A DNA stretch of 64,000 nucleotides. It comes from Pseudisothecium myosuroides (lineage: Eukaryota; Streptophyta; Bryopsida; Hypnales; Lembophyllaceae). The position numbers and the translations under genes were made by a program. Position 1 is the stretch's first letter. Every line of letters begins with the position of its first letter. The stretch covers positions 11,470,001-11,534,000 of the forward strand of contig OX637297.1 of NCBI GenBank assembly GCA_951799445.1, given 5' to 3'. Positions 29,104-59,295 of this stretch are shown in pieces. The notes under the pieces are model-generated. The model was not told the origin of the DNA. It saw only the letters and a list, made by a program, of their open reading frames with translations, and did not search any database.

Positions 29104-29570
29104 CAGGGTTGGCTGGACGTCTGGCGTCCGCATCTGGCACACCATCGAACGTCTTCCGCCATTTGGGAATTCGGGATTTTACCTGGGGTAAAAAAAAACC
29201 CGTCTGCATTGCGGACGACCTGGCCCTGTCCGCCCCGACCGAGGCCGTCCGCAACAGCATCCGCCTAATTCGACAGCATAGGGTGCGCTTTTAGTGAGGC
29301 GTCCGCCTTATTTGACGGCTGTGTGGCGTTGAAAGAATTCGGACGCCCCAACCGCAGCCATCAGCATCGGTTGGACTTCCCATCCGCCTTGACTACGCTA
29401 GCTGCCGTCGTCGGACGGCTGGGCATCCGTGGTCCCGTCCGCCAGATCCGATGATTGCGACTGCGCGGGCGGGTGGGCATCCACTGGATCCGACAGCTGG
29501 GATGCCTCCGACGGGTTGGATGGGGTATCCGCTTGCCATCCGGTGGCGGACAATTGGGACTGGGTGGGTG
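29104..29570 (+). repeat. Left terminus and CGTCCG-rich subterminal region of the giant hAT-like element
   Basis: It begins with the 8-bp inverted terminus CAGGGTTG, then dense GGACG/CGTCC words in both orientations to about 29570. hAT transposases bind repeated subterminal motifs, so these words are candidate binding sites. The right end (58830-59295) mirrors this. Confidence 0.6.
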
Positions 29571-31267
29571 GATTGGGATTTGTGTAAAAACTATTCCTAG
29601 AATTTTAAAAATTTGTTTCTGAACTCATAAGTTTAATAAATTTATTATTGGAAAAAAATTATAAATACTAATTAATATTTTTCTAACTTTTTCAGGGAGG
29701 GGCCTAGAATTTTGTTTAGCCTTTTTAGGGAAGAAGTTATAATTATATAAATTTGATTTGTGTCTCATTTTTTAATACTACGGTGGTTGCTAGAAACACC
29801 TACCGGTTTCTGTAGCGTTTTCCACAATACTCAATTTTTCATTTCAGAATACTGTATAATTTTAAAAAAAAAAATTTTAAATGGAAAAAATATTTTTAAT
29901 GTTTAAACCTTTCAGAAGAATATACCCTAAGAAGGAAAAACATATGAAAAATCTCTAAGTACGAGAACTAGAAAAGTCTCAAAAACTAGCAAAATGTCAG
30001 AAAAATAGGTACTTTTACATTTTAATTTGTAAAAAATAAGAAAATCAATTTTTAAAAATATCAAAAATGTCAACTTCGAAGAACTTTATGATAAAAAAAT
30101 TTCACCAACAGAATGATCTTAAAAGCATCATCAATGTTCAAAAAAACGGGTGCAAGGGAGCCCTATTAGCACGTGTGCGGAGGACGCAAAATAAAATAAT
30201 TTTTAATTTCCTTTGGTAGAAACATGACCTCCTACTATAGGAATAGACCATAGAAATTTCAGCTCTAAATCATTGATTTTGGGTGCTCCCCAATGCTAAA
30301 AATCCCTAAACCACAAAGTGTGACAAATTAGCTAAATTAAAATTTAAATATAAAACGATTTTTGAAAATTTCTAAAAAATAGGGGATCTGAAGACTATAA
30401 AGTTAGCCATCTTCAATAAAAATTTCAAGTGAATCACGTCCATGCTGCAGAAGTTATAGTGGATGACAAAAGAGTCACTTTCATTATGACGCAAAATAGT
30501 ACCAGACTTTCTTGCAATCACCCACTAGTACATTTTTTAATAAAATCATAAAAGTGATTGAAATACTCTTCCTTGGAGTTTGATTCAGAAATTCTATATT
30601 TTTTATAATGCAAGAACAAAAGCCTCTAGAACTTCACTGCCAAAAACACTTTATACATTTTGAATACAACATCCAAATTTTCCACAGTATCTGGACATTC
30701 TTGTTCATGAATTCTAAGAAATGAAAAAAATACTAGCCAATTATCCACTATTCTACGAACTTGTGGCGTATCCTAAAACCTAAGAAAATCCATTAAAGTG
30801 AAATGATTTCATTACAAATATATTCAATACAAAGTTCTTTAACTTACTAATTTATTGCTATGATTTATTTTTGGCCTCCTCCATTGACTAACATTGTAGC
30901 CATGTACAAATGTGGAATATGCAACAGCATCGAACGTGGTCATTTTCAACTATGTTGTAAAATACTTTCACTTCTTCAATAGCAAGGTATGTAGTACAAA
31001 CACTAGACAGTATTATTATTTCATTTTATTAGAAGATGCATTTGCCCAATTTAAATTTACAAATATGCCAGTTCATGTAACCTAATGTACTTTGAATTGC
31101 GTAAACGTTGTGCTCCATATTATTTGAAGGTGAAAACAAGCAAGATCCCATTTCACTACCAAAAATGGTTTAAATATTGGCATCATATGCCAAAACGGTA
31201 ATTAGATTTATTTTCCTACACCCTAAACTCTATAGGTCTATAAATAAAATTTCAACTTGTAACTGTC
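29571..31267. other. A/T-rich DNA, no gene seen
   Basis: About 1.7 kb with no ORF of note or recognisable repeat. It lies between the left subterminal tract and solo LTR F. Confidence 0.5.
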
Positions 31268-32146
31268 TGTCGTACGCGTAATCTAGGCGTAAGGATTCTT
31301 AACAACAAAACGTACTAAGATGACACAAGTTATCGTCCCAGGAGATTCCAGACGTTATCTCAAAATTAGTGTTTCTAGACCTCTAAGTTTCCAGATTTTG
31401 ACCACCTCAAGAAGGGTCCGTTCAAATCACAAATTCTCTTCCGGAACTACTTTCCTTCCGGATTCACTTCCCGGATCCGGTTTTATCCGATTTTCCGGTT
31501 TCTCTCTCTCTGATAAATTGGTTTTCTATACCTCTGTTTCACCCTTAGAAGGTTCCTCACTTGCTCTTTCCGAGGGGTAGGGAACTGCACCACTCTGAAT
31601 CTGACCTAAACTCTATAAACAATAAACAAAAACACAACCCAAGAAATGATCTAGGTGAGTAAACAGGGTGGCATCCTCACAACATTCCGGATGGCCTATC
31701 CGGAAAGCTGGTCACACAGGGTAGCGTTAGGTCCTCCTTACTACAATGACGGATACCGGACTTCCGGAACTAAGGGAATGGCTTCCAAGCTATCGACCGC
31801 TCATGAGGTTGACTAGCCTTCTGGTGGGTGGAAATGTTCCTCTGGCGGTTGCCGATCTCCGCACGGAACCGCCCCTGCGAATTCCGGACTAGCTTCCGGA
31901 CCACTACTTGGTCTCCACCAGATTACCGTACCAGCAATTTAAAGGCGCCACTTTCTCACTGCGCAAATCTAAAATTCATCTGCAAAACGTACTTAGCCTA
32001 ATCCAGCAGCCCAAGAATCCGGACTCCTCTCCTTGCACACTCTTACTTACACATCCACACAAGTGACTATAGACGCGATACGCAAGAGAATAATCCACAA
32101 GTGCTTTCCTGAATGCCTCAAATTAATATACAAGGAAAAGGAATGA

Positions 32147-32166
32147 CAGGCCAACAAGCCGGCCTG
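32147..32166 (-). promoter_or_regulatory. Conserved LTR hairpin (copy F)
   Basis: Stem CAGGCC/GGCCTG with loop AACAAGCC as given on the plus strand, the same structure as B. Confidence 0.5.
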
Positions 32167-32391
32167 CCCCTAAAAACCCACAAAAAGGCGACCCAAACGG
32201 CCACCAGAAAAATCTGCCAACGACCAAACAAAAAGCAAAAAGGCAACGGCCCTGAGGACCGTTCCGGGAATACCGGGAAACCGTTAAACCTCCTAAAAGT
32301 CTAGAACTACGGGCCCCACATCCGGGCAAACCGGTTCCGGAACTAGCTATCCAGCTAAAATCCTAACTATTACTACTGCTGCCCTAACTAG

Positions 32392-34329
32392 TCACCTCGC
32401 CTTCCTGGCTTTCTTCACTGAAGTGCCACCCTGAGATGGCGATCCACCTGACTTCTTGGGCGGGGTGGTCTTCGTCTTCGACCGGGTCTAGGGATGATAC
32501 AACTCCTCTTCCTCCGATTGAGTAGTTTCCTCGTCCTCTTCTCCTTCCGATTCCGGGTCCGTCTCATTTAGTAGCCGCCGTCCCCTTGGTTTTGGAACAG
32601 TAAGATCGATGAGCTGGGATGGCGCTGGTGTCTGGAGCATGGGCTGGAGCATGTGAGTAAAACTCAGCGGATCCGTTCGTGCCGGATTCAGCACCGTTCC
32701 GGGTAAGGCTGGTTCCCGGAAAGTGGAAGAAATCGGTCGATCTCGAAAGCGTTTGGCCACTGATGTAGTCCTTCCGGCTGGTACAACTGGAACCACGTTC
32801 TTCACCGGAGTCGTACTAGGGGAAGTTTCCGGATCCGGTCGAGATCCCGTAAATTGTTTGACCAATGAACGCCTCTTCATGGCCGATGGTGTTCCGGCCA
32901 CTGATGTTCCGGCAACTAACCTGCTCTTGGCTGGGGAAGGTTGGTTTTGTGCTCCTCCTTCTTGGAGATCCTGACCTAGGTCAAAAAGACCCTGGTCTAA
33001 TCCCTCAAGCGGATCGAGATTTTCCAATAACTGCCGGACTTCCTTCAATATCTCCTCAATCCGGACTTCGAAGTCCACCAGGATACTGACCACCTTCGAT
33101 CCGACCACGTGACTGTCTTCCACCATCTTGGAATTCCGGAGCGTGGCTCTAGCAAGTACATCTGCCGGATTGTCAAATAGATTCCGGACATTCCGGACCA
33201 AATCGATGGCTTCTCCTTCCTTTGCTTTGGCGGCGGTCTTCTCTCTGTCCGCCCATGCAACTTGCTCTTGGAACCGGTCCTGTTCCTGCTCCAAGGTCAG
33301 GATCCGGTCTTCCAACTGCTTCACTGCTTCCAGATCCGGCCTTTCCATCAAAGCCCCCAAGATCTGAGCTTCTTCCGTCACACCTAACTTCCCGCACACG
33401 TTTCGGATCAGGGCCGACATCCTCTTGTTCTGCCCCTTGGTGGTTCTCAGCCAGTTGATGGTGGCCTCGAACTGATCCGTTTCCGGAAGTGGTTCACGGG
33501 GCTGCTCCACCTCTTCGGCCTCTTGTTTCCCTCAAGAACCCAGATCAATAGACTTCTGGCGCGTCCCTGCAATATTGGGTGACGCATGCTCTGTTTCCGG
33601 TTCGTCTTCTTCTGGATCGGGCTCGTCCGGTTCATCTTCCGTAGGGAGTCCGTACTTCAGAAGATTTTTTCCTTTCTGGTACACGGTCATTTCCGGTCCG
33701 GTCAGCGCATCCTCTGAGTGATATAGATGGAAAAGGTAGAGGCTGATCGGGCTAGACTTCTTATTAGCGATGTTGACCGCTAACTTTTCCACTATGGAGA
33801 GAATTATCACTTCCCAACTGACCGTTCTAGGAGCCGGATTCTCCCTATCTCCTAGCACTCCGAAAATCGTATTTGCCAAAGTCATTGTTATCCAGGTGGG
33901 CTTTTCTGGATACAAAATCGGGATGAGAAATGCCAACAGCTGCCCATCCCGGGAACTCCTACAGTCACTCGCGGCGTTCCCTTCCTTGGAATCCGCATGG
34001 TTTTGGAATACGTTAGCCGTGTACCTATCTATCCGGCTAACTATTCCGGATCCTCTAGTTGGCGTAAAGTACGCCTTCGCCCACAACTCCGGAGTCCACG
34101 CCCTAGAACGACCCCTAAGAGTCAAATCAAACTGATTGCCAACTCCGGAAACAAGTTCGTCAATCATCCCTTCACTCCGGACGTCCCACGGCCTTCTAAT
34201 GAACCCTAAGCACCCCATGATCTCTAGGTCCTTCTCTAACTCCTTGAGGCGCTCCGGATCAGAAGGAATAATCGGGCGTACACCCCAGGCTGACACTACC
34301 GGTCTCCGGACTTCACTCGCTTCCGCCAT
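32392..34329 (-). pseudogene. LTR-borne ORF (copy F), two in-frame stops
   Basis: This is near-intact: 646 codons from MAEASEVRRPV to a TGA at 32392. A TGA near 33532 sits where copy B has CAA, and a TAG at 32488 is shared with B. Domains follow copy D: MGCLGFIRRPWDV, ILYPEKPTWITMTLANTIF and SLYLFHLYHSEDAL, an E/P linker, a coiled coil with ILTLEQEQDRFQEQVAW, GSKVVSILVDFEVRIEEILK, NPARTDPLSFTHM, and a basic tail KKARKAR beyond the TAG. If the shared TAG were read through or spliced out, the tail would be restored, as in D. The ORF lies wholly within the LTR. Confidence 0.82.
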
Positions 34330-34474
34330 CTCATCGACGGCTAAGACAATCCGGTGCAATTGGCACCTTCTTCCCTTTCTCTCCCTATCACGCCCTAACT
34401 CACCACTCTTTCTCTCTTCTAACGCACCATGGAGAAGCACGGGAAAAAGAGACCAAATGAGGCTAGCGGTGGGA

Positions 34475-34482
34475 TTTAAGTA
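34475..34482 (-). promoter_or_regulatory. Candidate core promoter of LTR F
   Basis: TTTAAGTA on the plus strand (TACTTAAA on the minus) about 150 bases upstream of the ORF start, conserved with B and D. Confidence 0.35.
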
Positions 34483-34769
34483 CCTGTCGGAACCCTAAGT
34501 TCCCGACCAGTCTGAAGTTCCCGTAAGTTCCCTAGACCGAACCTAGGCGGTAGGTTCCTATGATCCGAAACTTTCCGGCTTTCCGGCTACGGATTCCGAA
34601 TGACTGCGTAACCTAAATAGAGTTTTATCTTTTCTAGGAAAGGACTAATTTCTAATTCTAGTATCAAGGTCCTAATTCCGTATTCTAATGCAAAAATCAA
34701 AAAAGTTCTGCTACTTTTATCTCTACTTGTTTGCTATTTTTGAGTTTCCGGATGTTACATACTCCCACA

Positions 34770-36944: not shown

Positions 36945-37719
36945 TTTGAAGTATCCAAAATCAGGAGGATAATAATAGTCTGAGTAGTTTGTATTTTTGT
37001 AATATTTAAGTTTTTGAAATTTAATTATACTATTATAGGATAAAAATTAAAAATTAAAAAAGATTGATTACAAATTTATAATTTTTCCAATTCAATATGT
37101 TGTAGAAGGGCTTCCATTTCAATTTGAATTCCTCATAGTGTTGAGTGTTTTTGGAAGTGCACCTTATATACTATAGATCTTGTGGAATACATTACGATAG
37201 AAATTCATTTTAAAAAATTGAAAAATAGACTTTCGGAAGCAATAAATTGATCGGAGATTTGAAATTCTGCAGGGAAGGTCCTTGAACCTCAATTTTCCGG
37301 GGGTAAGACATTTTCATTGGTGTGCAATTTTTATTGTGTTTTTGCATCCACTTACTTGGGTTAAGAGTTTAAAGACTTTGATTGTTGTACAATTTATATG
37401 TCATTTTCACACTCTATTTCATTTTTTTTTAATTCTTATTTTTACGTAAAATCCATTGTACTAAAGTAACTTAGTAACGATAGAAGAACAATACTAGAGC
37501 CAAAGTTGGCACAAGAATAGGTCTTGAGCTATAAACTAACAATTATCGAACCCTTTAATTGGTGACTTTGTGTGAAATTTCTTGTTTGTTTTTACACGGT
37601 ACTCTGGTAGCGAATGCACTTCAATTGGTTAAAAAAAAAATTCGAAGTTGGGAATAGATTCAAGTTTGTTGGACACCCTAATTAGGTGCCTTGGATATTT
37701 ATGGATTAAAATAATGGGC

Positions 37720-38100
37720 GATCGGGCGGTCCCCATCCGCGCCCACGCCCGGTCGCTCGTTCGGTTGGCCTACCGTCCGCATGGACAACCGCCCCTCCGT
37801 CCTCCCGTCCGCTTGGCCGACCGCCCCTCAATTTGAAACTCCGACCGCTCCCACGGTCGTCCGCGTAGCTGTCTGCGCATCCGCAGCACCGTTCGCCGGG
37901 CTGTTGACCCAACCGCGCCATCCGCTAAGCCGTCGGTCCCCTCCATCCGCATTCTTCGTCCGCACGGTTGTCCGCGCTTCGTTGGTGGCCGTGTGATCCA
38001 ACGGACGCTCATTTCTGGCCACACGATAAGGGCGTCCGCCTCGGGGGCGTCCGATGCGGACGTACGCCTCGACATCTCGTCCGCATAAATAGCTGAGTAG
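37720..38100 (+). promoter_or_regulatory. CGTCCG-rich tract upstream of U2 (internal copy)
   Basis: GC-rich block of GTCCG/CGGAC words ending about 210 bases before the U2 start. The host copy has the same block expanded to about 1 kb. Confidence 0.55.
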
Positions 38101-38311
38101 ACGGTATTTCTTTCACAACTGTTTTCCGTCTGGAGTGGGTAATCCAGTGCTCGATGTCCGCTCAGCGGCTCTGTGCACCCCTTCCGGTTCGGTATGTGAA
38201 CAATTGTGTTCCTGTGTTGGGATACTAAATTGCTTCAGGCACTTAAGTTAATTTTAGTAATTCATTGGGTCAAACAAACTCGACATTTCTTTCACTTCAA
38301 TCCAGGTCACC

Positions 38312-39400
38312 ATGGTTTCCAAAACACCATCAAAGAGCAGTAAGAAGGGCAAATCCCAAGAGATGAACTAGCAAGCTTGGGCAGACCCGAATTGCGTAGT
38401 TGAACCTGGATGGCAAGAGGAGCCGAAGAAAGTTTGGACTTGCACCATGTGTAAAATGTACGTGAAAATGACGCACCTCTCGAAGATTTGGCCACAAGAC
38501 AGTGAGGATACATAAGTTCGCCGTTGGGAAGGAAACATGGCCACGTGTAAAAGCAAACACTTTATACACCGATACGAGAAAGTGACGCAGTCAGTTGGTA
38601 TACTTGATTTCAAACCAGGAATTATGAACTATTCGAACATGGCCATGGTTTGGGTGGAGATTGTACTCCACAAAAACGTTGACTGGCGCACAATTTATAG
38701 AAAAGATGTGGCCAACCTTAATCGCAGTGTTGCAGTAATTAGTGCCAGCTAGTTTGAACTAAGCAACTGCCTTGGAGAGTGGTCAAATCGAGGCTTCGAC
38801 ACATTTCCACAGGTTGTAATGCTGGATGCGGACGACGAATATCCGGATGACGATGATGTTCACAATGATCCAGCACCCGTAATATTTCGAGGGACACACG
38901 AGCGTAGAGAATCTCGAGAAGACATTCAATTTCAGCAAGACCTGATGGAAGCGATACGCAGAAGCCGAGACGATCGTGGAGGATGGGACGGACTATATCG
39001 CCAAGACCGTGGTGTATATGGCTCACAAAATGGGCACAGAGATTCATTCTATGACAACAACCCCCGAGTTCACTCTTAGAGTGGAGGCGGAAGCCATGGA
39101 ACTACGCACTATGTTGCTTCTATCCAAGGAAGCTCCCAGTACTATTCAGGATCTAGTGCTGCTAGTTCATATGGGCATCAAGTAGGCTCTCATCGTGGCG
39201 GTTCAAGTGCAAGAGCATCTGACCACAATGATCCAATTCCTCCTCCAACTTTCAGAGGTCCATACTACGAAAATTATAGACAAGGAAGTGTGCCAAGTGA
39301 ATATGAAAACATTTATGGCGAAGGATCATATATTGGCGTTCAGGGGATTGGTTCCAGAGGTCCTAGTCAGGGAGATGACAACGAATCTAATTCCAAGTGA
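38312..39400 (+). pseudogene. U2: BED-like zinc-finger protein gene, internal copy
   Basis: One frame of 363 codons, from ATG 38312 to TGA 39400, with four in-frame stops; at three of these the minus-strand copy has Gln or Trp, and the first TAG is shared. It starts with a Ser/Lys-rich leader, then VWTCTMCKMYVKMTHLSKIW, a CxxC...H arrangement like BED fingers of hAT-related proteins. NYSNMAMVWVEIVLHKNVDW follows, then an acidic patch (DADDEYPDDDDV), an Arg-rich region, and a Gly/Ser/Tyr-rich C-terminus (YYSGSSAASSYGHQ). The first ~130 residues are paralogous to the start of the long gene at 47429. A DNA-binding accessory role is inference. Confidence 0.66.
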
Positions 39401-41650: not shown

Positions 41651-41874
41651 TCTCACTTTTGTTTTCCCCCTTGTGTCTAGCAAGAGCGGAGCGGAGAGCT
41701 TGATGGGTTTCCCCCTCCATTGGTTCCTCTCCTCGGAAAGACAGAAGTCAGATTTCTGGGGGCCCCTTTTTGCCGGATTTTTTAGCTGCACTGTATGGTT
41801 TATATGAAATTGATTTTCCACGACACTTATCATTCGACTTTCAAAGTATTCATTGATACTACAATGCCTTCACA

Positions 41875-43397: not shown

Positions 43398-43430
43398 TTC
43401 ATTACTATTTAGAACTACAAAAGTATGTAG

Positions 43431-47110: not shown

Positions 47111-47220
47111 TCGGTGTACGCTGCCGAGGCAGACACCGACGCTGCGACTGGCGAACAGCACGTCCGGATCCGCTTTGGCGCCTGTTTAGGTTTGGTGGTG
47201 GACGCCTATAAGGGCGGACG
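46990..47220 (+). promoter_or_regulatory. CGGACG-rich tract upstream of the BED/RING-like gene
   Basis: GC-rich GGACGG/CGGACG words ending about 210 bases before the ATG at 47429, followed by a pyrimidine-rich stretch. A paralogous tract without a gene is at 44420-44670. Confidence 0.55.
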
Positions 47221-47428
47221 GCTTCCTCATTTTCTCTCACTTCTTCTCTCCAACAAGGCCAAGTTGGATGTGCTGTTGTTGCTTCATGTGCTAGTTGCTC
47301 CTACTTGGTGGAGAGAGGGGGTCATTCATCTTTTATTACAACAAACCATTGACACATTCACTTACGAACAAACTTATCGCGTGCGGGAATTATTGAATTT
47401 GAAGTGTTTACAAATCCAAATTGCCATC

Positions 47429-48739
47429 ATGGCCGCTGAAGGTGGTGTGGGTACGGAGGGGACAACTTCAGGGGTTCAAAAAAACAAGAGTTAAAGTAAA
47501 GGGGGTCGCACATGGGATGCACTACAAAATTTTAGATGATCCCAATATCAAAGCCACGAGTGGGTGGGAGGAGGAAGAGGGTGACTATTGGCCATCCTCA
47601 ACATGTAGAAAATATGTTAAAATGTACCACATTGACAAGTTGTGGCCTTGGGATTCCCTCGAGCGTCACACAATTGATTTCTCTTGTAAGCCATGGACTT
47701 GCAATGACATGCACTTCAAGCATCGATCGTTGGAGGTGTGGACGGCCCTTTTTGGAAACAGGCCAAGGTCTAAGGGGTACATAAATTATAGCGTGGCGTG
47801 CATGGTGTACGCAAAACTTGTATTGCATTGGAAGGTGGACTGGAGCACGTATCCAACATTTACCGGATTTCCACTTCTGCTTGCAAGGAATCAAAAAGAC
47901 ATTCCTGATTTGTACAATGCCAAGGCACAACCAACGGAACAGAGAGGAGTATTAAAAGATACTACGACGCCGGCCAAGAAGGTCCGAAAGGGCTCGAGGG
48001 CTGCAGCACTGTTGGGTTCTACAAAGATACCAACGACTGTGAACGGTGCCTCTTTGGGAGGTGTGGATGGACATGTGTTTGTAACTGCTTTGACAAGTTT
48101 GCTATCCACACCAAATCATGTAAGACACGTGGGTGAGCACAGCGGTGGTCCGAACACAAAAGACGTCCCAAAAGAATGTGGTGACCATTCTACGCGACAA
48201 GAAGAGATCCGAGTTGCAAAGGCTAATGCTACAATTGGACGTATTATAGACAGCAATGTTCTAGATAGCCTAGCATATGTGCCTCCTAGTTGTGACTCAC
48301 CAACAACACAGAGCCCAATACTGAGTCCGAGTGTTGAAGTGCATCCGTTACAAACAAATGTAGAGCAGCCCGAGAACGTGCCCATGAATCACACCACAGA
48401 TGGCGCTGAGACTTGAAGGAAGTACGCACACTTGTTAACTGAAAGCGTAGGGGATCTTGACACTGTCTATAAGATGCCCCACGCAAAGCAAGTAGAAGCT
48501 TTCCGTAGGTGCGCAATACTGATGAAAGAATTTGAGGACGAACGGATCCAGCTTGAAGGGCCCCAAAACCCCGAGAGCTCTGTTCCACTAATAAAAAAAT
48601 ATGGGAATACGTTTTTTGCGGACACCACTGAAAGGCTGGCAATATCCACTCGACATATAGCTGGAATTTCCCCGCTAGTTATGGACTTTGCCAGCGACTT
48701 AGCAACCATGGCGCCACAGCTGTTGACGGGTGCAACTGC
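47429..48739 (+). pseudogene. U3: BED-like / coiled-coil / RING-like gene, 5' part
   Basis: The start is ATG 47429 (MAAEGGVGTEG). The frame must shift by one near 47490 to enter the main frame, MHYKILDDPNIKATSGWEEE. STCRKYVKMYHIDKLWPWDS and NYSVACMVYAKLVLHWKVDW then align with U2, so the two genes share an N-terminal BED-like domain. A Ser/Thr-rich middle follows, one in-frame TGA (48414-48416), and a helical region (KMPHAKQVEAFRRCAILM). Solo LTR E splits the gene at 48739/52590, and the frame resumes exactly after it. The combined gene would be about 1060 codons. Role unknown; DNA binding and ubiquitin-type chemistry are inference. Confidence 0.66.
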
Positions 48740-49398
48740 TGTGGGAGCACAAAATATAAGGATAAAGTTAGTTAGTTAGAAATATGAAAAAAAGAGTGAG
48801 AACTGGTAAAATTTTTGGCTTTTTATAAGGCTTAAATACGAGTTTTACCAAAATTAAGATATATCTGTGTTAGAACATCTCTAAACAGATAATATGGTTA
48901 AGAAAGAGAATTAGAGTTTCCCGATTAAATTAGGAAACCGGAACCGGATCCGGAACAAGGTATCAATCCGGAAGTTACCCAAGTACCGGGCCGGGCGTGA
49001 ACATATGCAGGAGGATACCGGAGAGCCAACAGGAAGTCGTTAGGGCAATCCTGAGATCCAATGGCTCTACCGGAAGTTAGGGAGAGCCGTTTAAATGGTC
49101 ACAGTCTTTCGGGATTGCGACAGAAACGGTAACCCTAAAACGGCTGGAAACGGATAGTTTGGGAGAAACCTAGAAAGAGGAAAACTTCCGTCTTCATTTT
49201 TCATTCTGAATTGAGGAAACACCCTTGGAGTTTTCAGAGCGGTGGTTTGCAGATCAGAATGTGAAGACGGAGGGTTCCTAGTTTCCGGATCCGGATAGCC
49301 TAGTACCGGAGTTTGTGAGAAAGGATCTGTAGTTTCCTGTATTGGAGGGCTTGTGTGAGAATTGTGCGTGGCAGGGTAAGGAGAAATATTTGAGTGCA

Positions 49399-51249
49399 AT
49401 GGTGAAGGGTGAGGGTAGTGAGGTTGTCGTCTTCAAAACCAAGACTATCCACTCGGTCATCCCGGAAGATGAAAATCACCGGAAGCAGTTGGAGGAGGAT
49501 TTGGGTCAAATCGGATGCCTCGGATTCCTACGGCGACCATGGAGCCTGAAGGACGATGAAATGATTCGGGAGCTAACAAAGGACCAGTCCAACGAATGGG
49601 ACAAGACGCATCGAGCGCTGCCAAGGAAATGGACCCTCGAGACATGGAAAGCAGTTTATGACTTTCCTCGTCAAGGAGACGGGATGGCTTCCCGGACACA
49701 CAAATTCGTGGAGGGTAAGTTTTCTGACACTCCCCACAAAAAGGATGGTTACCTCGTGGCGGACTGCAAGAATGCTAGGGAGAAGAGATTATTAGAGTTT
49801 ATAGTTCCGATAGTGTATTTGGAACACCCATCCTGGATCACAGTGACTTGGGCAAACACGATCTTCGGTGCCCTGAGCGGAGAGAGGAAGGTATTCTGGG
49901 GAGAGATAGTGAAAGATTTAGTGGGAAAGATGGTATCTACCCTAGGTAACACTAAGGCCACGGCAATTGGCCCCTTCCTCTTCCACCTCTATGATTATCT
50001 AGGGACACTTAGAGGTCATGAGAGAACCACTTATAAGGCTGCAGCCACCATCCAGAAGTTTAACATCGTTCCTCCTAAGAAACAAGAGGAAGAGGTAGAA
50101 GAAGAATCAGAGGGAGGATCTTCAGAAAAGAAGGAGGAATCTTCAGAGAGAGCCAGAGAGGTCTCCCCCCAAAAATAGAAACCTAGGGGTAAACAAAGGG
50201 AGTTCGAAGAACCGGAAAGTTTACGGGATAAAACCCTTGGGAGGATCATTAAGGATCTCGAGAGGATTCATGAAGAGCTGAGTGCCGAGAGAGGAGCAAT
50301 CCAGGATGTATGCGGACTGTTTGGGGGGATCGAGGTAGCTGAGCTCGCGAAGAAGGTAGAGGGTTTACTTCGGGATAAAGAATCCCGTAAGTGGGAAACC
50401 CGGGTTAGGGAGTTGACTGAGAGGAATGAGGAACTGACCCGGAAGTTAGAGAAAAGTGAGGCAGGAAGTAAGGAGGTTAGGAAACTTTCCTCTGAGGCTG
50501 AGGATACACTTCGCAAAGTCCGAAGCTTTGTATCTTACTCAGGTAGTGTGATCAACAAAGCTAAGTTGTTTGACGAAGGGATCCTGAAAGAAGGATCTGA
50601 AGCAGCCGTGAAGACAGTGTTGGTACTGGCGGAGTATTCAACATCAATGGAGAAGATGATGTACGAGATCCGGGATGTTCTTCAACAGTCGGGGTTCTAT
50701 CAAGACCCGAAGAAAGCACCCATGTCCCCACCTGTCATACCAAAGCTGAAGGAGGAGAAGACACCTGGGAAGGGAGCCTCCAAGCTGAAGCCGGAAGAAG
50801 GGGAAGGATCAGTACGTGCATCCGGATCTAAGGAGAAGAGGAAGTCCGGATCCGACCTCGGGACCCCCTAGAGTAAGGATCCAAAGCAATCTCCGAATGT
50901 TCCCAAGTCAACGAAGAAGAGAAAGAAAACAAGCAAGCGTGCCAGAGAGGTGTCTCCCGTGAGTTACCACTCGGAAGAGGAAGAGTCACCAAGTATGTCA
51001 AAGAAGGATGATAGCCCGACGGGATCCGGATCCCAGTCGATAGCGGTTCCAGATTTTGAATCCGAGGACGATTCAGACTTGGAGACGATTTCTCCTTCCC
51101 AGGTCAAGGGTAAGACATAGACACCCTCAAAGGGGATGCCAACAAAGGGCACGACATCGAAGGGGGTCAAGCCATCTCCAATCCGGAAACAGCCACCCCG
51201 GAAAGGAGAAAGCAAAGAGGAACCTACTCCGAAGAAGGCCAAGAAGTAG
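49399..51249 (+). pseudogene. LTR-borne ORF (copy E), three amber stops
   Basis: One frame of 617 codons from MVKGEGSEVV to TAG 51249, broken only by three TAGs (50176, 50869 and 51118). Domains in order: IGCLGFLRRPWSL, PIVYLEHPSWITVTWANTIF, GPFLFHLYDY, an E/S-rich linker, a strong coiled coil (RELTERNEELTRKLEKSE), VLVLAEYSTSMEKMMYEIRD, a Pro/Lys region, an acidic patch and a basic tail KKAKK. The overall plan is that of D, though sequence identity is low. Function unknown. Confidence 0.8.
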
Positions 51250-51506
51250 TTAGGAAATTCCCTGAGTTAATCCTTGCATGGTTAAACTCAAGTTTTTAAG
51301 TAGCAAGGAAGCAGTTAGTTAGCTGCATTTTAGGAGGATGCACCTGGACTTTAGTTTCCGGGATATTAGGATCTGAGATCCACATTTGGCGGATCGGCTG
51401 ATAGGAAGTCAACTCAGATGGATAAGGAATGACGGGTGTCATTCTTTGGTCCTTTATTTTGGTTTGCTGGGAAACTTTAGGGTTTCCCTTGGGTTGTTAT
51501 TTAGGG

Positions 51507-51525
51507 GTTGGAAGTTAGTTTCAAC
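51507..51525 (+). promoter_or_regulatory. Hairpin at the conserved LTR position (copy E)
   Basis: Stem GTTGGAA/TTTCAAC (one G-T pair) with loop GTTAG, shortly after TATTTAGGG, at the position of the hairpins in A, B, D and F but with unrelated stem bases. Confidence 0.4.
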
Positions 51526-52589
51526 TCCGGGCGTTTTCATATTCTTGTATTTTCCATTTCAATTTCTGAAAAGAAAGCTTGAAGTTCAACTCCATGAGTA
51601 CTGGTCTGAAAAGTCTTGGTCTTGTGTTGAGGGGTTAGGTAGTGTTTTTATCATTGCGAATTCAGGTAGTTTGATAGTGAAGCTTTGAGGAGAAGAGGCG
51701 TCCCCGGATTCTGTTCGGATCTGGTTCCGGGAGTATTTGGGTTGGTGAAAGTCTGTTGTACTAAGAGACAGTTCTATCTATTGATGTTTCTTGGGAGTCT
51801 TCTGAGCGAGATAGCCATTCCGAGGTTAGGGGAGTCCTTGAGAGGAAGGACAAATGCTAGCTGATGTCTGAGAGGTTTTGCTGTAACCGGAAGAGAGGAA
51901 CTGGAAGGTAGCTAGGATCTGTTAGTACAAGAGTACCCGATTTAGCTCTTGGGATTCTACCCGGATAGATCTGTCGTTGTAGTAATGTGGGGATTGTGAG
52001 GGTTTTCTGAGTGACCTTCTTGTCTGGAGTAACTTCCCGGATCAGTTGTGAGGAAATACTTGCTTTCCGGTTTTCTTTATTTTCTTTGTTATTTCTCTTT
52101 TAGTGGAACTTCAGCCACTTTAAACCAGTGGAGGGTAGGATTTATGTGTCCTTCCTTAAGTCCCAGAGCGGAACCCTCTGATGTAGAGGTTAAACTATAC
52201 CCTTGTTCGCATTGATTGCTAGATCCGGATCCGGGAAAGGTAGAGGATCAAGACACTCTTTCCGTTTCCGTGTTTAGCTAAAGCGGGATACTAATTTATT
52301 GATACCATTGTGAAGGAATGCAGACCTGGTTCTTGTTGATTGGTAATATGTTTGAGAACTAGGTTGATACAGGAGAAAGTTCAACGAATACAAAGCGAGA
52401 AGTCTAGTTCTACATTTTATTCTTAGATTCTGTTTGTCTTTGGTTTTGTGTTCCGGATCCTGTTCCGGGTATTTTGAGGATACTACTAGTTGAAATCCTG
52501 TGGGAACGATACACGAGTCATCTAAGGTGTTTTACACTACTTTAGCACTTAAGGGAGGGATTTGTGCTTTGCTGTGTTACGACAACTGC

Positions 52590-54471
52590 TTTCTACAAGT
52601 TCACCATCAGTGAGTTGTTACCAATGCTCGATGCTAGGAAAGCAAGCTTGGAGGCAACAGTAGAAGTAAAGCTCCTCAACAAAGAATTGAAGATGGAGCA
52701 TGATGCCTTGGAACAGAAGTTGGAGATTCTGACTTCTAGTATCGGTTGTGGACGTTGTGCATACATGAATCATTTGTATGGCCCAAAGGACCTGCAGCCC
52801 AAACTACCAAGGTCGTAGGCAACTCAAGAAAGCGATCAACTCTCTCTTCCTCTCGACAAGGGCAAAGCAAAGGAGCCAATTTGTATAGTGGATTTGGATG
52901 ACATTCCAGTTTCAAATCCAGAATTGAATGAGGCAAATAAAAAAATTGCCCTTCTCGAGGCAGAATTGGAATGAATGAAACGAGTATTCAACATGGAAGA
53001 CTACGGGCCTCCGAGCGGATTGGAGTCTCAATGGTTGGGATGGGTACAGAGACTCCAAGACAAACCCTCCTTAGTATCTCAAGCAATGAACGGGCTTCGC
53101 CAAACTGCAATGAATTCGGATGAAGAATGCATTGCCGTTGAGGCCTGTTTGCGGAGGTTTAAAAGGGTGTTGGAGGAACATCCATGGGGCTCCACGGAAG
53201 TCACATTTTGGAGAGAGACGGATGCCATGTTGGAGCAGTTGAACCACATAAAGAATGAAAAACATGGCCCCATCAATTGGGCCTTGGAAGTAGAGGAAGG
53301 ATGGGTGCCTTACGAAACGCTCTCAGCACACTTCAAGAAAGATGAGAAGGTAGTGGTGTATGGTGCTGATAAAAGTAGTGACATGTTGAAGGGTCATTGT
53401 AGCGTGTGCCAAACGGCTTTCGGTCATGAAGGAAGCGTAACTTTGGGCCATTGTCGCTACATTTTCCATCACAAATGCATTGTCAAAGCATCATGTTTTA
53501 GCTCGGTTTGTCCAGAGGGTCGTTCTCCTTTGAGCCCTAGGTTCTATGAATGGTTTGGTCTCTTGGAAGGTATGCCCCCAGGTCACGAATACAATAGATG
53601 GAACCTTCCACTTGACCAAGGGCCATTTAAATTTCAAAATTACAAGCATTGGGGGAAAACTCTAGCATGGAATCCAAAGTTACTGACGCATGGACTCTAT
53701 GAGGCAAGCTTGCAGTCGGTAGATTCCTTCATGTGGATGACCCAAAATAGAGAAGTGGAGTTGCGGGCCCGTAGTATTGATGATGCCGAGGCTCGTGAAT
53801 TGTTTTGTCGCAGCATGGGGGGGGACATTAGAGTGTGCAATACGAGAAGTTCTTTTGTTTTCCAGAACCGGAAGTGCAGAAAGGGCCAGACAACAAGTGG
53901 GTGGAGGTGGAGCGTACTGAAGAGTGCACTGAGCAATACAAGGCGTACAACCATGATTTGATGGGCAAGGCCCTCTTCTTGTCAAAGTTGGAAGAAGCTG
54001 CAGAAGTGCATGCTTGGGTGGAAATAGATGGCAAATCAAGCATAGGGGATCCGGTAGTGGATGTTTGCAACGGCATTTGATAGGAGGATTGGCGACATAA
54101 TAACTAATTGGAGGACCTTCCTATTGGAAGGAGGCTTCGAAGGGACGGAGGTACGCAGTACACTTGATGACGAAGTGGTTAATGGGATGATAAATCGAGT
54201 GGATGCGGCCTTGAGAGCCTTAAAGGCTAATCACGTGGATTTGACTCCGAAGCAAATTCAGAAATGGAGGGTGGAAGATGATGCTGACTATTCCCCAGAA
54301 GAAGCTAAGAAATATTGCGTAGTTGAGCGGGCGGGTAAATCCAGACACGTCACTGGCCAAGAAAGTCCAGGGGGCCAACAACGCCAAGAAAGTGTGAGAA
54401 TCGCTGCTATAGTGGCCGCCCGCAATAAAGAGGGTCCGTCGAGTGGTACGAGAGAGGATAGCGGTGCTTAA
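52590..54471 (+). pseudogene. U3: BED-like / coiled-coil / RING-like gene, 3' part
   Basis: This continues the frame of 48739 (...GATA, then FYKFTISELLPMLDARK). First comes a coiled coil (LLNKELKMEHDALEQKLEIL), then two in-frame stops (TAG 52816, TGA 52972), and a long open stretch with FWRETDAMLEQLNHIKNEKH. A Cys/His cluster at about 53398-53516 reads CSVCQTAF...LGHCRYIFHHKC...CFSSVCPEG. Its CxxC...GHC...HHxC...CxxxCP spacing is RING-like but not canonical. Frameshifts follow at a G8 run (about 53820) and near 54062. The end, KQIQKWRVEDDADYSPEEAK... to TAA 54471, is charged and helical. The gene is decayed. Confidence 0.66.
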
Positions 54472-55137
54472 ATAGAGATGGACCTCTCGGTCTAGTAGGA
54501 TAGAAGTGTATGCATTGTTGCGTGGTTCTTATTTGTATTTGGCTTTACTAAGTAATTGTAGTATTGTACGTACGATTAGTACGATATGATTTGATTAGCC
54601 TTTGAAATTTGTATGTGTATATCTTCTTTGATAAGAAATTATATTTTTATATGTATGCGTATATTCATGTATTGCAAATACGTTTTGATTTGCTTCCAAT
54701 TCTTGGAATTAATGGGCCATATCGTTTACTAGTCAATACTTTGAAGATAAAGGAAATTTAAGTAGCTGGTTTTCTCTAGTAGTTTATAGTTTTGAAATTT
54801 GAATTTTGACAAATGCTTCTTGAAGTGTAGTTGTGGGAAATCTATAAAACCAAGCCCTTGCAAATGCATGATTAGAATTTATATATTGAAAATTTTGTGC
54901 AAGGATACCAAATGGAAGATTGACTTCCTTATAGTAAATGGTATTCTTTTGCTTTGTTTCTATATTTCATGTACAACATGTCTAGCTTCAATTAGTACCA
55001 AGTATGGTTGAAATGCAGTGCAATTCAGTTTATCTTTTCAGAATAAGTAATGCAGGCATGTTGATTGGTTATTCGGTTTAGACTGTAGAGCAATTTCAGA
55101 GGAGGCTCGAAGAGGACTTCGTCACTAAGAAGTGCAT
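54472..55137. other. A/T-rich spacer
   Basis: 3' flank of the BED/RING-like gene and 5' flank of the transposase gene. No other feature is supported. Confidence 0.45.
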
Positions 55138-55340
55138 GTTTCGAACTGCCCCGACCGCTTGGGCAGTCCGCGGCAACCGTGCTTGGCGTCCGCATCAGCC
55201 GTCCGTAACGACCGCGCTTGCCATCTGCGGCGGCCATGCTTGCCATCTACCTCTACTGCGGTTCCCGTCCGAGTCGACGTCTCCGTCCGCATCGACCGCG
55301 GACGCCATCCGTCCCGACCTCCGCGACTGCCCCCGACCGT
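55138..55340 (+). promoter_or_regulatory. CGTCCG-rich tract upstream of the hAT transposase gene
   Basis: GTCCG/CCGTC words in a short GC-rich block about 300-500 bases upstream of ATG 55638. Same class of tract as upstream of U1, U2 and U3. Confidence 0.5.
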
Positions 55341-55637: not shown

Positions 55638-57293
55638 ATGAGTAAGGATTTCTCCCCTTGGTATGGGGTCCCATCACCAAATAAAGTATAGTGTAAGGCT
55701 TGCAAGTCGGTCTTTGCGAAGAAGCTCAGCCACTTGAGATATGAAGGCCGTTCAGGTTCTCACGATACTGGAGTGAGCTTGTGTTTGCAATTGACAGCCG
55801 GAATTCGCACTCTATTCGTTCGTTGCAATGGACAATTTCCACCACGACCTCTTCAAAACAATTTGGATGGTAATGATGCGCCTATGGACGGAAGCGAAAT
55901 GTCAAATGGGAGGGGCACGCCACGTTCTACATAGGAGGACTCATGCAGAGCACCTGAAGAACATGTTCCTATAGGATCCAAAATGACACCAAGTACGGAA
56001 ATATCTTGTGAACGTGAGACTCTGAGGCTTCGGACACAAAGTAGCCTACAAGATGGCTTCCAAAAAGTGAATAAACGAAAATTGCATGCAACATGGGCCC
56101 ATTTTTTTTATGCGGCCAACATACCATTTTCTGTTGCCCAAAATCCAGCCTTTAAAGAAGCAGTGAAGCTAATGGCGGAGTGCAGTAGGCCATACACTCC
56201 TCCGACGTACTACGACTTGCAACACAAATTGCTTGAGCAAGCAAAGACAAATCTTGCGTCAAAGTTGCACAATAGGACCAAAGATAGCATGAGGAAGTTT
56301 GGAGCAACACTGTCCATTGATGGACGGAATTCAGTTAGTAATCGCCCATTGATAAATGCCATGCTTGTATCCTCAGCGGGTGAACAATTCCTAGGATCGG
56401 TGAATACAAGTGGAAAAGAAAAGACTTCAGTATATTTGTGTGCTATCTTGGAGAAATTCATAGAAGAAGTGGGTCCAAGAAATGTCGTGCAAATTACTGC
56501 AGATAATGCTCCCGCAAACAAGGCAGCATGGAAATTGGTATCCTCAAAGTATCCACACATTTTTTTCCAAGGGTGCGTAGTGCACGCTTTGAACTTGTTG
56601 CTCAAAGATTGGGGCAAGCAAGCATGGATTGACGAGTCGGTGCAGAAGGCCTTGCTTGTAGTCAATTTCTTTCGGAAAAGGCATATGCCGCTTGCCATGT
56701 TCCGAAAGTACGAAACGACGTATAGTTTGTTGAAGCCGGTGGCAACAAGATTTGCCTCTAATTTTATCATGATTGATCGCTTGTTGGAAGTGAAAAGAGC
56801 ATTGCAATAGAGTGTGGTGGATCCACAGTGGGTCGCCTATGTGAACACGTTGAAGGACTACGGCAAAGGCAAGTCACGTACGCAATCTCGAGAGGTGTCC
56901 AGAATTATTTTGAATGAGCACGACTAGAACCGCTTGACCAATGTGCGTGAATTGTCCGCCCCAGTCGTGTACGGCCTACGTGATTTGGATGCAAAGACAC
57001 TGTGTATGGGGAAGGTGCTGCATATTACGAGGAATATACAGAGCCATGTCTTCACTCTACAAGAAGAGCCATTTTGTTTGGCGCCGCACCTAGCTAGACC
57101 ACTTGAGAAGTCTTTTTGCAAACAAGGGAAAATGTTCCAGACAGATCTACATTATGCAAGAGCTCTTTTGAATCCCTACCTTCTTCACGATAAGGATCTA
57201 GCCGACGATCCAATCGCAACAGAGAAGTGCAAGGAAGTCATAATGAAAATATGTGACCCTAGAAAGTACGCAAAGGTGGTGAAGGAATTTGAA
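55638..57293 (+). pseudogene. hAT transposase (BED finger plus DUF659-type core), N-terminal and central part
   Basis: MSKDFSPWYGV is followed, after one TAG, by CKACKSVFAKKLSHL, a BED-type finger (CxxC...HL). A linker leads to the DUF659-type core: TYYDLQHKLLEQAK, then FGATLSIDGRNSVSNRPLIN (first Asp, about 56316), VVQITADNAPANKAAW (second Asp, about 56500), GCVVHALNLLLKDWGK (Cys-His pair, about 56570) and RKYETTYSLLKPVATRFASN. Two TAGs (56808 and 56926) interrupt the following region, which runs to IMKICDPRKYAKVVKEFE. At about 57294 it is replaced by an LTR fragment, so the segment with the catalytic Glu and the hATC dimerisation domain is missing. The transposase would act on hAT termini such as those at 29104 and 59295. 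Confidence 0.8.
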
Positions 57294-57488
57294 TCCGGAG
57301 AGAAAGTAGTTCCGGAAGAGAGTTTGTGAGTTGGATGGACCCCTCTTGAGGTGATCAAAATCTGGAAACTTAAAGGTCTAAGGAAACTAAGATTGAGATA
57401 ACGTCTAGAATCTCCTAGGACGATAACTTATGTCATCTTACCACATTTTTGTGTTAAAGATACTTACGCCTAGATTACGGGTACAACA
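57294..57488 (+). mobile_element. 3'-end fragment of an ORF-bearing LTR inside the transposase gene
   Basis: 195 bases matching the last part of LTR B (9260-9462): 'aagtagttccg', 'ggacccctctcgaggt', 'tctcctaggacgataactt' and 'cttacgcctagatta', ending ACAACA at 57488. The 5' side is truncated, so this is the scar of an insertion followed by deletion that also removed transposase sequence. Confidence 0.8.
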
Positions 57489-58108
57489 GTTGCGATACTT
57501 CAGGTAGCTCCGGCTTTGGAAAACGACTTGCCAACATTCCAAAAGACCCTAAACATAATAGTGATCAAAGTCGGATCATATCATCAACCGATGATGATGG
57601 GAATCAGACATTGGCTTCAATGTTGCAACGGAGCATTTTGCGCGGTGCACCACCACGACGCATAATGAAATCGTCAACCCCTATACCACACTCTAGGAAT
57701 GCAATGAATGTATCCATTGATGGAGGGCCTACATCTAGGAAATTAGAGGTCAAACAATCCGTTGAAGAGAAGAAGAAAAAAGGTATGCAACCTTTTGCGG
57801 TTTTGCCAATTAAAAAACAGAATGTTAGTAGAACCCCCCTCGATGCACGTTTGCCGGCTGCAAAGAGGAAAATAAAATCGATCGAAGGCGTTAAGGAATC
57901 TAAGAGGAAAGCCATACTGAAGGTCAAGGTTGAAAACAAGAAGGTGAAACGAAAGTAATCACGCACACGTACGCAAGTAGAAGAAGGAGGATCTTCATCT
58001 GACAGTATGGAAGAGACATCAAATGATGAAGATGTTAGATGGAAGAAGGGATGTGAAAGTAGTGGGGCGGAGGTGAAAGGAGATTTTGATTACAGTCCAT
58101 CTTGTTGA
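57489..58108 (+). pseudogene. hAT transposase gene, C-terminal tail
   Basis: After the LTR scar the reading resumes as a Ser/Lys-rich tail (RRIMKSSTPIPHSRNAM, then AKRKIKSIEGVKESKRKAI). It contains a TAA at 57956-57958, after which another 50 codons read to TGA 58108 and end in an acidic patch. Such basic/acidic tails are common beyond the hATC domain. No hATC signature is seen here, consistent with its deletion. Confidence 0.55.
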
Positions 58109-58829
58109 AGGGCTTGAAGGGATGTAGGCTTAGGTGTTTACGTGCTCATATTACATGTACCAAAAGCTCCTAATGACAGAAGGTTGTTCTCAACTTTTAT
58201 TGTAGAAGTACCATGCTTGTTGATGTTGAGTTTACATGGAGTCATGGACGGTTTTACTTGGTTGTGTAAACTAAGGAAAAATTGAATCTGAATCTACTGT
58301 GCATTTATTTTCTTGAATGAAGCATGGTATGTTGCAGTTGAATTATATATATTATATAATGACATAGGATATGCTTCATGTCTGGACTTTCCTTAGTGTT
58401 GAGGGCTCGTGGAAATGAGCTTCAAATACACTACATGTAGGAGCAAAAATCACATTAAAAATTCATTTAAAAAAAATAGAAAGAAGATGTTGAGAAGCCA
58501 TAAATTGATTGGGATTATGCCTATTAGGAGCTTTAAAATCATATTTTTTGGTGCCCAACTTCTTAGATTTGATATGTGCAAAAAGGATTGAAAGAAATTC
58601 TTTGATTTAACAGCCTCTTGATGGAACATTATAATGTTTTAACCCATAACTGAAATTGTTGTATTTTCCTTTCCTATGTGATGTCTAACATGTCTAGTTT
58701 GAATTTGAACCGTTACAATTTGAAGAAATGTATGCAACTAATGAATTAGTTGGCTTCTTATTCAACTTAGCTCAAATTTGTAGAAGGTCTAACAAGAAAT
58801 TGGGCATTTAGGGGGTAAGGGGTAAACCC
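58109..58829. other. A/T-rich spacer
   Basis: 3' flank of the transposase gene. No gene or repeat is supported. Confidence 0.45.
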
Positions 58830-59295
58830 CTTCCCTCCCATCCGCCTACCTTCCGTCTACCTAAAAATCGCTCGTCCGCCGTTTCGGACAGATATCCGTC
58901 CACCCGTCCACTGCTCCGTCCGCCTTGAAAATCGGCTATCCGAACGTGCGACTTGAACCCCCCCCCTCATCCACCCAAAACCCCCCCGACCGCTCTCCGT
59001 CCGCCAGAAAAACGGCCGTCCAACCGACTGTGAGGCAATAAACAGGCCGTCCGCCTAACCATCCACTAGTAAAACGGCCGTCCAAATGAGCGACCGCCAA
59101 ACCCACCCCCCGTCTGCCCGCCCGTCCGCTCTCCGTCCGCCAGTAAACAGGCCGTCTGCCGGGGTAAAAACGACGTCCACCGGGGCAAAATTTGGCCGAC
59201 CGTCGATTTACCCAAGCGTCCACTACGACCACTGCGTCTGGACGTTCCAAATCTAGACGCGAATTGGCCCCGGATATTCAAATCCGTCAACCCTG
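58830..59295 (-). repeat. Right terminus and CGTCCG-rich subterminal region of the giant hAT-like element
   Basis: Repeated CCGTCCGCC-type words, including several 'aacggccgtccaa' and 'aggccgtc' units, run to the terminus CAACCCTG at 59288-59295. It mirrors the left end (29104-29570). Confidence 0.62.

What the first reader, a model, noticed from the sequence alone, without database searches (positions are those of the whole stretch)
29104..59295. A 30-kb hAT-like transposon with accessory kinase-like, BED-like and RING-like genes
Seen directly: identical 8-bp flanks CACCGTTG at 29096-29103 and 59296-59303, inverted termini CAGGGTTG/CAACCCTG, mirror-image CGTCCG-rich subterminal tracts, and an enclosed BED-plus-DUF659 hAT transposase. 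The flanks are the two halves of one U2-U1 unit that is contiguous elsewhere. Known: hAT elements make 8-bp TSDs, have CAGGG-type ends and bind subterminal repeats. Typical hAT elements are a few kb; 30 kb with accessory genes would be exceptional. Inference: the enclosed genes moved as cargo, or the element grew by later nested insertions.
Basis: partly seen in the sequence, partly recalled or inferred. Interest (0 to 1): 0.93.

Follow-up and report, generated by a model that had tools for sequence, protein, structure and literature searches.

The report
Giant hAT transposon carrying four genes
A jumping-gene family of a kind that is usually about 5 kb long has here grown to roughly 23 kb and moves as a unit with extra genes, inserting in different places of one chromosome, including into another copy of itself.

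Summary
X (29104-59295) has matching 8-bp target duplications and 8-bp inverted ends; an uninterrupted paralog of the target, inside X itself, aligns without a gap across the junction with one target copy. The source genome is held (388 Mb). Left- and right-end searches pair up elsewhere on the same chromosome. Three further copies have both ends read: E2 22,981 bp (GCCTCAAA, exact), E3 31,295 bp (CATTTAGT, exact), E4 28,710 bp (CAATAGAA/CAATGGAA, 7 of 8). E2 is colinear with X end to end (blocks 82-91%). The copy into which X jumped (Y) has the same left end. Accessory genes B and C (unknown), kinase-like and RING-like recur with the DUF659/hAT transposase in copies with different duplications, so they travelled as cargo. 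About 7.5 kb of X is later insertion: gag-only elements Z and D, and a 0.2-kb fragment replacing the transposase C-terminus. Native size was about 23 kb; X looks dead. dN/dS hints at past selection on transposase, RING and part of the kinase-like gene. Not shown: cargo function, present activity, host name, or the whole gene set in any copy but X.

The parts
29096..29103 (.). left target-site duplication CACCGTTG
   Evidence: empty-site alignment
59296..59303 (.). right target-site duplication CACCGTTG
29104..29111 (+). left terminal inverted repeat CAGGGTTG
   Evidence: the left end matches at 18 other places within the first 48 bases of the query
59288..59295 (-). right terminal inverted repeat
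   Evidence: right ends elsewhere
29104..29560 (.). left subterminal GTCCG/CGGAC-rich tract
   Evidence: 9 motifs, 1.97 per 100 bases against 0.127 in the rest of the window (regions chosen by eye)
58840..59295 (.). right subterminal tract
   Evidence: 7 motifs, 1.54 per 100
31268..34769 (-). later nested gag-only LTR-type element Z, duplication CTGTC/CCGTC; not native to X
   Evidence: absent from E2 at this site; boundaries
37700..38150 (.). GTCCG/CGGAC-rich tract upstream of gene B
38312..39400 (+). accessory gene B, unknown family, with in-frame stops in X
   Evidence: translation; also in E2, Y and W, where a 464-aa open frame exists
40588..40595 (-). X's own unoccupied copy of the site into which X jumped in Y (one target copy)
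41230..41660 (.). GTCCG/CGGAC-rich tract upstream of the kinase-like gene
41875..43397 (+). accessory kinase-like gene (catalytic-loop-like motif YNDISLDN), split over frames
   Evidence: also in Y and, its first part, in E2; W homolog has a weak Pkinase match, E 0.0023, below cut-off
45478..46785 (.). 78-bp tandem array between kinase-like gene and gene C
46980..47260 (.). GTCCG/CGGAC-rich tract upstream of gene C
   Evidence: matched in E4 from X 47004 and in E3 from X 47171
47403..48735 (+). accessory gene C, unknown family, distantly related to B
   Evidence: present next to RING in E3 and E4; 34% identity to B of Y over 105 residues, E 1e-16; 24 homologs listed
48740..52584 (+). later nested gag-only LTR-type element D, duplication ACTGC on both sides; not native to X
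   Evidence: absent from E2, E3 and E4 at this site; boundaries
52975..53961 (+). accessory RING-like gene
   Evidence: RING E 0.0009, below cut-off; homolog P0046 E 1.7e-7, above cut-off; present in E2 (split by an insertion), E3 (start only read) and E4
55110..55340 (.). GTCCG/CGGAC-rich tract upstream of the transposase gene
55640..57290 (+). hAT transposase: BED-like pattern, then DUF659 (open frame 55935-56807); broken in X
   Evidence: the same gene in E2 keeps the Dimer_Tnp_hAT domain
57291..57483 (.). Z-end-like fragment that replaces the transposase C-terminal part in X
   Evidence: E2 has about 1,055 bp of transposase sequence here

Best explanation
X is a dead copy of a giant hAT-superfamily DNA transposon family. 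The native element was about 23 kb (about 22.6 kb after subtracting insertions from X, plus about 0.9-1 kb of transposase that X has lost). It carries, on one strand, gene B (unknown), a kinase-like gene, gene C (unknown, related to B), a RING-like gene and a DUF659/hAT transposase, between CAGGGTTG ends with CGTCCG-rich subterminal tracts. Shown: the whole segment inserted into a sister copy (Y) with an 8-bp target duplication; other copies with the same ends and other duplications carry overlapping parts of the same gene series in the same order. Inferred: the transposase binds the subterminal tracts and moves the element by cut-and-paste; similar tracts in front of B, kinase, C and transposase tie the cargo's expression to that binding; the cargo (a RING-type ligase, a kinase-like protein, two proteins of a new family) helps the element itself, for example by acting on host silencing or on the transposase, rather than being random host passengers.
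For: Empty site, gap-free with one target copy. Left-end search: 35 rows at 21 places, 19 of which (X included) start within the first 48 bases of the end (my count). Right ends pair with left ends at C11:15247171-15278465, C11:7842334-7865314 and C11:2998202-3026911. Duplications there: CATTTAGT 8/8, GCCTCAAA 8/8, CAATAGAA/CAATGGAA 7/8. The 150-200 bases outside the ends of X, E2, E3 and E4 share nothing between copies at E 1e-3. E2, read in full, is colinear with X, blocks 82-91%. C-RING order in X, E3, E4; RING-transposase in X, E2, E4; B-kinase in X, E2, Y. E2 transposase: 1,045-aa open frame with DUF659 (E 4.8e-36) and Dimer_Tnp_hAT (30.6 bits, cut-off 21.4). dN/dS X against E2: transposase 0.24, RING 0.34-0.36, kinase first part 0.24; the same DNA in wrong frames: 0.71-0.97, 0.66-0.73, 1.85. 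A transposase homolog (P0012) and a gene C homolog (P0051) both list a longest contig of 491,363 bases, so probably the same contig.
Against: Only X and E2 were read in full. B and kinase were not looked for in E3 and E4. The full five-gene set is seen in one copy (X); E2 lacks the kinase end and most of C, and its RING gene is split by an insertion. One left-end copy (C10:3177980) shares only its first 1.1 kb and a dispersed repeat with X and shows no CAACCCTG end in 40 kb. Selection is not clear for B (0.41, 1.12, 0.63, 0.84 against E2), weak for C (0.46 and 0.59; wrong frames 0.67-0.82), absent in C's tail (E4 1.5; E2 4.62 on 31 codons), in the kinase second piece (1.45) and for the transposase between E2 and E4 (0.61; wrong frames 0.43 and 0.63). 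A diverged B-kinase-C cluster (W) with open frames and no recognised hAT ends lies nearby, so these genes may also exist outside the element. Ends plus duplication alone are not significant by shuffling. No Pfam BED.
Confidence: 0.88

Rival explanations
1. X is an ordinary hAT of 5-8 kb (ends plus transposase) that swelled by unrelated nested insertions; the accessory genes are residents of those insertions.
For: Two nested elements (Z, D) and one fragment account for about 7.5 kb of X. Other insertions sit in E2, E4 and Y.
Against: After their removal about 22.6 kb remains, most of it colinear between X and E2, which have different target duplications; C-RING and RING-transposase junctions are the same in three copies each; Y shares left end, B and kinase.
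Confidence: 0.05
2. A host gene cluster (B-kinase-C, as at W) was captured once by a hAT element and then multiplied; the genes are passengers that decay and do nothing for the element.
For: W has longer open frames and no recognised ends; B and C show little or no purifying selection between copies; the transposase has stops in each of the four copies. Capture and amplification of host genes by hAT elements is on record: histone H3 in a 9.5-kb hAT of a fungus (PMC6710886, passages read).
Against: RING, kinase first part and transposase show correct-frame dN/dS below the wrong-frame values in most comparisons (exceptions listed in the report); similar CGTCCG-rich tracts sit at both termini and before four of five genes; a gene C homolog probably shares a contig with a transposase homolog elsewhere.
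Confidence: 0.3
3. The copies are segmental duplications of a chromosome region on C11, not transposition events.
For: All copies with both ends read lie on C11; 8 of 19 left ends are on this contig, which is 16.9 of 388 Mb.
Against: Homology stops at the same ends, each copy with its own 8-bp duplication; the 150-200 bases outside do not match between X, E2, E3 and E4; X sits in a precise empty site; left or right ends also occur on C1-C8 and C10.
Confidence: 0.03
4. A macrotransposon: two separate hAT elements whose outer ends jointly moved the DNA between them, as known for maize Ac/Ds.
For: Ac transposons of up to 22 kb are cited for maize (PMC10175614, passage read). A second left-end-like sequence lies inside Y at 65155 and in E2 near its position 2703.
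Against: X has no internal CAGGGTTG; I found one transposase in the frames scanned; the same segment recurs at several sites, so it propagates as one element.
Confidence: 0.06

Closest known systems
hAT superfamily elements with DUF659 transposases (Ac/Tip100-like, recalled)
   Same: 8-bp target duplication, short CAGGG-type inverted ends, DUF659 core and hAT dimerisation domain (in E2), repeat-rich subterminal tracts
   Different: about 23 kb with four accessory genes; hAT elements are given as about 5 kb, from 110 to 7,144 bp (PMC6710886, passage read)
Histone-H3-carrying hAT of Pseudocercospora fijiensis (9.5 kb)
   Same: DUF659 hAT with a captured gene, 8-bp duplications, many copies
   Different: one captured gene, less than half the size, fungal (PMC6710886, passages read)
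ToxhAT/ToxTA (14 kb, fungal wheat pathogens)
   Same: large element with cargo, first called hAT
   Different: later reassigned to Tc1/mariner because of TA duplications and 74-bp inverted repeats (PMC12506042, passages read); here 8-bp duplication and hAT domains are seen
Maize Ac/Ds large elements (macrotransposons)
   Same: hAT ends moving large DNA (up to 22 kb, PMC10175614, passage read)
   Different: there composite segments (recalled); here a repeated element with a recurring gene series
Starship elements of fungi
   Same: giant DNA transposon with accessory genes
   Different: tyrosine recombinase (DUF3435) as first gene (PMC12506042, passage read); here a hAT transposase

Membership tests
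hAT superfamily | 8-bp target-site duplication | tested here: met
   X, E2, E3 8/8, E4 7/8
hAT superfamily | short terminal inverted repeats, CAGGG-type | tested here: met
   E3 has one substitution at each end and E4 one at the left end
hAT superfamily | transposase with DUF659 core | tested here: met
   E 3.7e-34 in X, 4.8e-36 in E2
hAT superfamily | C-terminal Dimer_Tnp_hAT domain | tested here: met
   E2, 30.6 bits over cut-off 21.4; lost in X
hAT superfamily | N-terminal BED zinc finger (common, not universal; recalled) | tested here: inconclusive
   W/CxxC/HL pattern in four copies, but no Pfam BED match in the E3 frame scanned
hAT superfamily | cut-and-paste movement through hairpin intermediates | not testable with these tools
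   needs biochemistry
Starship | tyrosine recombinase at one edge | tested here: not met
   no such family in the frames scanned (10 frames of the window, 9 of them partly or wholly outside the transposase); transposase is hAT. Small frames were not scanned
Maverick/Polinton | polB, integrase and capsid genes; 6-bp duplication (recalled) | tested here: not met
   8-bp duplication; none of these domains in the frames scanned; small frames were not scanned
Ac/Ds-type macrotransposon | two complete elements bounding unrelated DNA | tested here: not met
   no internal CAGGGTTG in X; same gene order between copies where read

The most novel reading that the evidence does not exclude
A previously undescribed lineage of giant, self-propagating hAT transposons that keeps a co-regulated accessory set (RING-type ligase, kinase-like protein and two proteins of a new family), each gene except RING behind a CGTCCG-rich tract like those at the termini: a cut-and-paste counterpart of fungal Starships in another branch of eukaryotes.
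Probability: 0.5. Interest if true: 0.9.

Novelty: new variant of a known kind. Interest (0 to 1): 0.8.

Why it matters
hAT elements are textbook small elements with one gene. A repeated family about 23 kb long with a recurring accessory gene series asks how a hAT transposase brings such distant ends together and what a DNA transposon gains from a RING ligase and a kinase-like protein. It also gives a natural system, probably outside fungi, for studying cargo-carrying giant transposons, with several insertions, an empty site and a self-nested copy in one assembly.

Tried and rejected
Viral-contig scans with the transposase and with the RING protein found no relatives. Structure predictions for gene C and the RING protein were too poor to use (mean pLDDT 44.8 and 42.4), so no fold search was made. 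Sequence searches of solved structures gave nothing for the transposase (0 matches up to E 1) and 4 weak ones for W's kinase-like frame, the best at E 0.3. An alternative genetic code was considered because three in-frame stops in the X transposase fall where homologs have Q; it was dropped because E3 and E4 have a sense codon at the stop that X and E2 share, and the other stops are of all three kinds. The C10 left-end copy was walked for 40 kb and gave no right end. A general scan for 8-bp duplications plus 14-bp inverted ends (12 of 14 matching) in 244 kb gave 46 hits (2 in the control), most of them palindromic sites inside inverted copies; it did not list X, whose ends agree over 8 bases only, and did not delimit W. 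My first genome pattern (CAGGGTTGGCAC) was not X's own end; it gave 41 matches against 11 for the reversed control.
Full report
What was checked. A self-comparison of the window shows that the flanks of X are two parts of one older repeat, here called Y. The stretch 36949-43330 inside X (minus strand) is a relative of the flanks without the X insertion: 20590-21589 and 27388-29096 on one side, 59301-60658, 61068-62514 and 63123-64000 on the other, 82-92% identical. Across the junction the alignment has no gap and exactly one target copy. X is therefore one insertion with an 8-bp duplication. Ends and duplication alone would not have been enough (1 of 4,046 pairs; 845 of 2,000 shuffles reach 1).

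The genome. The window is C11:11470001-11534000 of a 388-Mb assembly in 222 contigs. Of 45 transposase relatives listed, the named ones are from flowering plants and the alga Closterium, at 29-44% identity; the best are unnamed (68% over the whole query). A plant or green alga is likely, but this is inference.

Other copies. The first 600 bases of X match 35 rows at 21 places by my count; at 19 of them (X included) the match starts within the first 48 bases of the end. The last 700 bases give 43 rows; only 40 of 528 candidates were scored, and most rows are a dispersed repeat at about 58598-58820, so right ends are a lower bound. Left and right ends pair on C11: E3 15247171-15278465, E2 7842334-7865314, E4 2998202-3026911, and E5 from about 5353301 to 5380080, whose right end seems cut by another insertion. 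E3 is flanked by CATTTAGT on both sides, E2 by GCCTCAAA on both sides, E4 by CAATAGAA and CAATGGAA. The 150-200 bases outside these ends do not match between X, E2, E3 and E4; two matches were found between E3's own left and right flank. The element that X sits in, Y, has the same left end at window coordinate 79617 (minus strand) and is colinear with X, apart from insertions, through B and the kinase-like gene until it is broken at 20590. X is thus inserted in its own kind, in the spacer between B and kinase, and X's own intact spacer serves as the empty site.

What is native and what was added. E2, read in full, aligns to X in order: X 29104-31267, 34769-42561, 48551-48735, 52588-57291, 57484-59295; blocks are 82% (the first 178 bases) to 91% identical. 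Z (31268-34769, duplication CTGTC/CCGTC) and D (48740-52584, duplication ACTGC twice) are missing from E2 at these sites; D is also missing from E3 and E4. Both have gag-like frames related to others in the window; neither shows terminal direct repeats, so LTR-type is a reading from TG..CA ends and 5-bp duplications. X minus Z, D and a 193-base fragment is about 22,650 bases. The fragment replaces about 1,055 bases of transposase sequence present in E2.

The genes. Transposase: DUF659 in X; in E2 a 1,045-aa open frame with DUF659 and Dimer_Tnp_hAT. The BED-like part is readable in four copies; X and E2 carry a stop there, E3 and E4 do not, and E3 and E4 have stops elsewhere, so each of the four has at least one stop. 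Pfam finds no BED in the E3 frame that holds the pattern. RING: weak in X, clear in homolog P0046; four homologs listed, none with a named organism. Kinase-like: catalytic-loop-like motif; Pkinase E 0.0023 in W's copy and Pkinase_fungal E 0.04 in a piece of X, both below cut-off. C: 24 homologs listed, no precomputed Pfam domain. B: no Pfam match for W's 464-aa frame. B and C are distantly related. The contig length 491,363 is listed for both a transposase homolog (P0012) and a C homolog (P0051); that it is the same contig is inferred from the length.

Which junctions were seen where. B-kinase: X, E2, Y. C-RING: X (with D between), E3, E4. RING-transposase: X, E2 (RING split by an insertion), E4. 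Kinase-C: X only.

Selection (NG86 dN/dS; wrong frames of the same DNA in brackets). X against E2: transposase DUF659 part 0.24 (0.71, 0.97), next part 0.37, RING 0.34-0.36 (0.66-0.73), kinase first part 0.24 (1.85), kinase second piece 1.45 on 45 codons, B 0.41, 1.12, 0.63, 0.84. X against Y: kinase 0.28 (0.64), 1.29, 0.35, 0.62; B 0.19, 0.79, 0.62, 0.48, 1.0. X against E3: transposase 0.48 (0.52, 0.63), RING 0.48 on 96 codons (0.65, 0.48), C 0.46 (0.67, 0.69), C tail 0.60 (0.37, 0.57). X against E4: transposase 0.41 (0.48, 0.72), RING 0.33 (0.60, 0.70), C 0.59 (0.72, 0.82), C tail 1.5 (0.51, 0.63). C tail against E2 4.62 on 31 codons (0.35, 0.39). E2 against E3 transposase 0.30 (0.93, 0.95); E2 against E4 0.61 (0.43, 0.63). 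The pattern fits selection on transposase, RING and the first part of the kinase gene before insertion, followed by neutral decay; it is not decisive, and there is no clear signal for B or the tail of C.

Regulatory reading. GTCCG/CGGAC is 12-20 times denser in seven tracts (both ends, before B, kinase, C with its duplicate, and transposase) than in the rest of the window outside these and two tracts of Y; I chose the tracts by eye, so the factor describes and does not test. That the transposase binds its own gene promoters is inference.

Literature. Searches (open-access library only; others listed 20 of 34, 20 of 50 and 15 of 23 papers) showed, in the titles and abstract starts listed, no giant hAT family with several accessory genes. 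PMC6710886 (passages) gives hAT sizes and a 9.5-kb gene-carrying case. PMC12506042 (passages) moves ToxhAT out of hAT. PMC10175614 (passages) cites Ac transposons up to 22 kb. Subscription papers are not covered.

Verdict. A real, multi-copy, giant hAT family with cargo; the window copy looks dead and is padded by about 7.5 kb of later insertions.

Noticed in passing
window 20590-79617 (beyond 64000 in loci L017-L018): Y, the element that X is nested in, is itself a member of the family with its left end at 79617 (minus); no match to X's C-RING-transposase half was found in the 100 kb to the left of 20590 that were read.
   Followed up: partly
L023:4240-8458 (-) and L024:6484-8553 (+): A diverged B-kinase-C cluster (W) some 60-80 kb downstream of the window's end with longer open frames (B 464 aa) and no recognised hAT ends: an ancestral host cluster or another element.
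   Followed up: partly
window 21590-27387: A 5.8-kb element with 8-bp duplication AATGACCC and CTCGGGGGGG-type ends sits in Y's kinase gene; a similar end sequence borders the insertion in E2's RING gene and E5's right end.
   Followed up: partly
window 60659-61067: A 0.4-kb insertion with CACTAGTAGAA...TTCTACTAGTG ends, MITE-like, in Y's gene B.
   Followed up: no
window 31268-34769, 48740-52584, 3852-9463, 15902-17875: Elements with related gag-like frames; in Z and D no terminal direct repeats were found although both have TG..CA ends and 5-bp duplications.
   Followed up: partly
G000 C11: The family members with both ends read lie on C11, and 8 of 19 left ends do, although C11 is 4.4% of the assembly: a possible refuge or special chromosome.
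   Followed up: no
window 45478-46785: 78-bp tandem array whose unit resembles the region downstream of gene B (39638-39890); sequence on both sides of it is a duplicate of 43815-44662.
   Followed up: no
L001-L008: Other places with CAGGGTTGGCAC, 41 against 11 in the control; in two of the eight loci read the following bases are alike and AT-rich, perhaps another hAT family.
   Followed up: no
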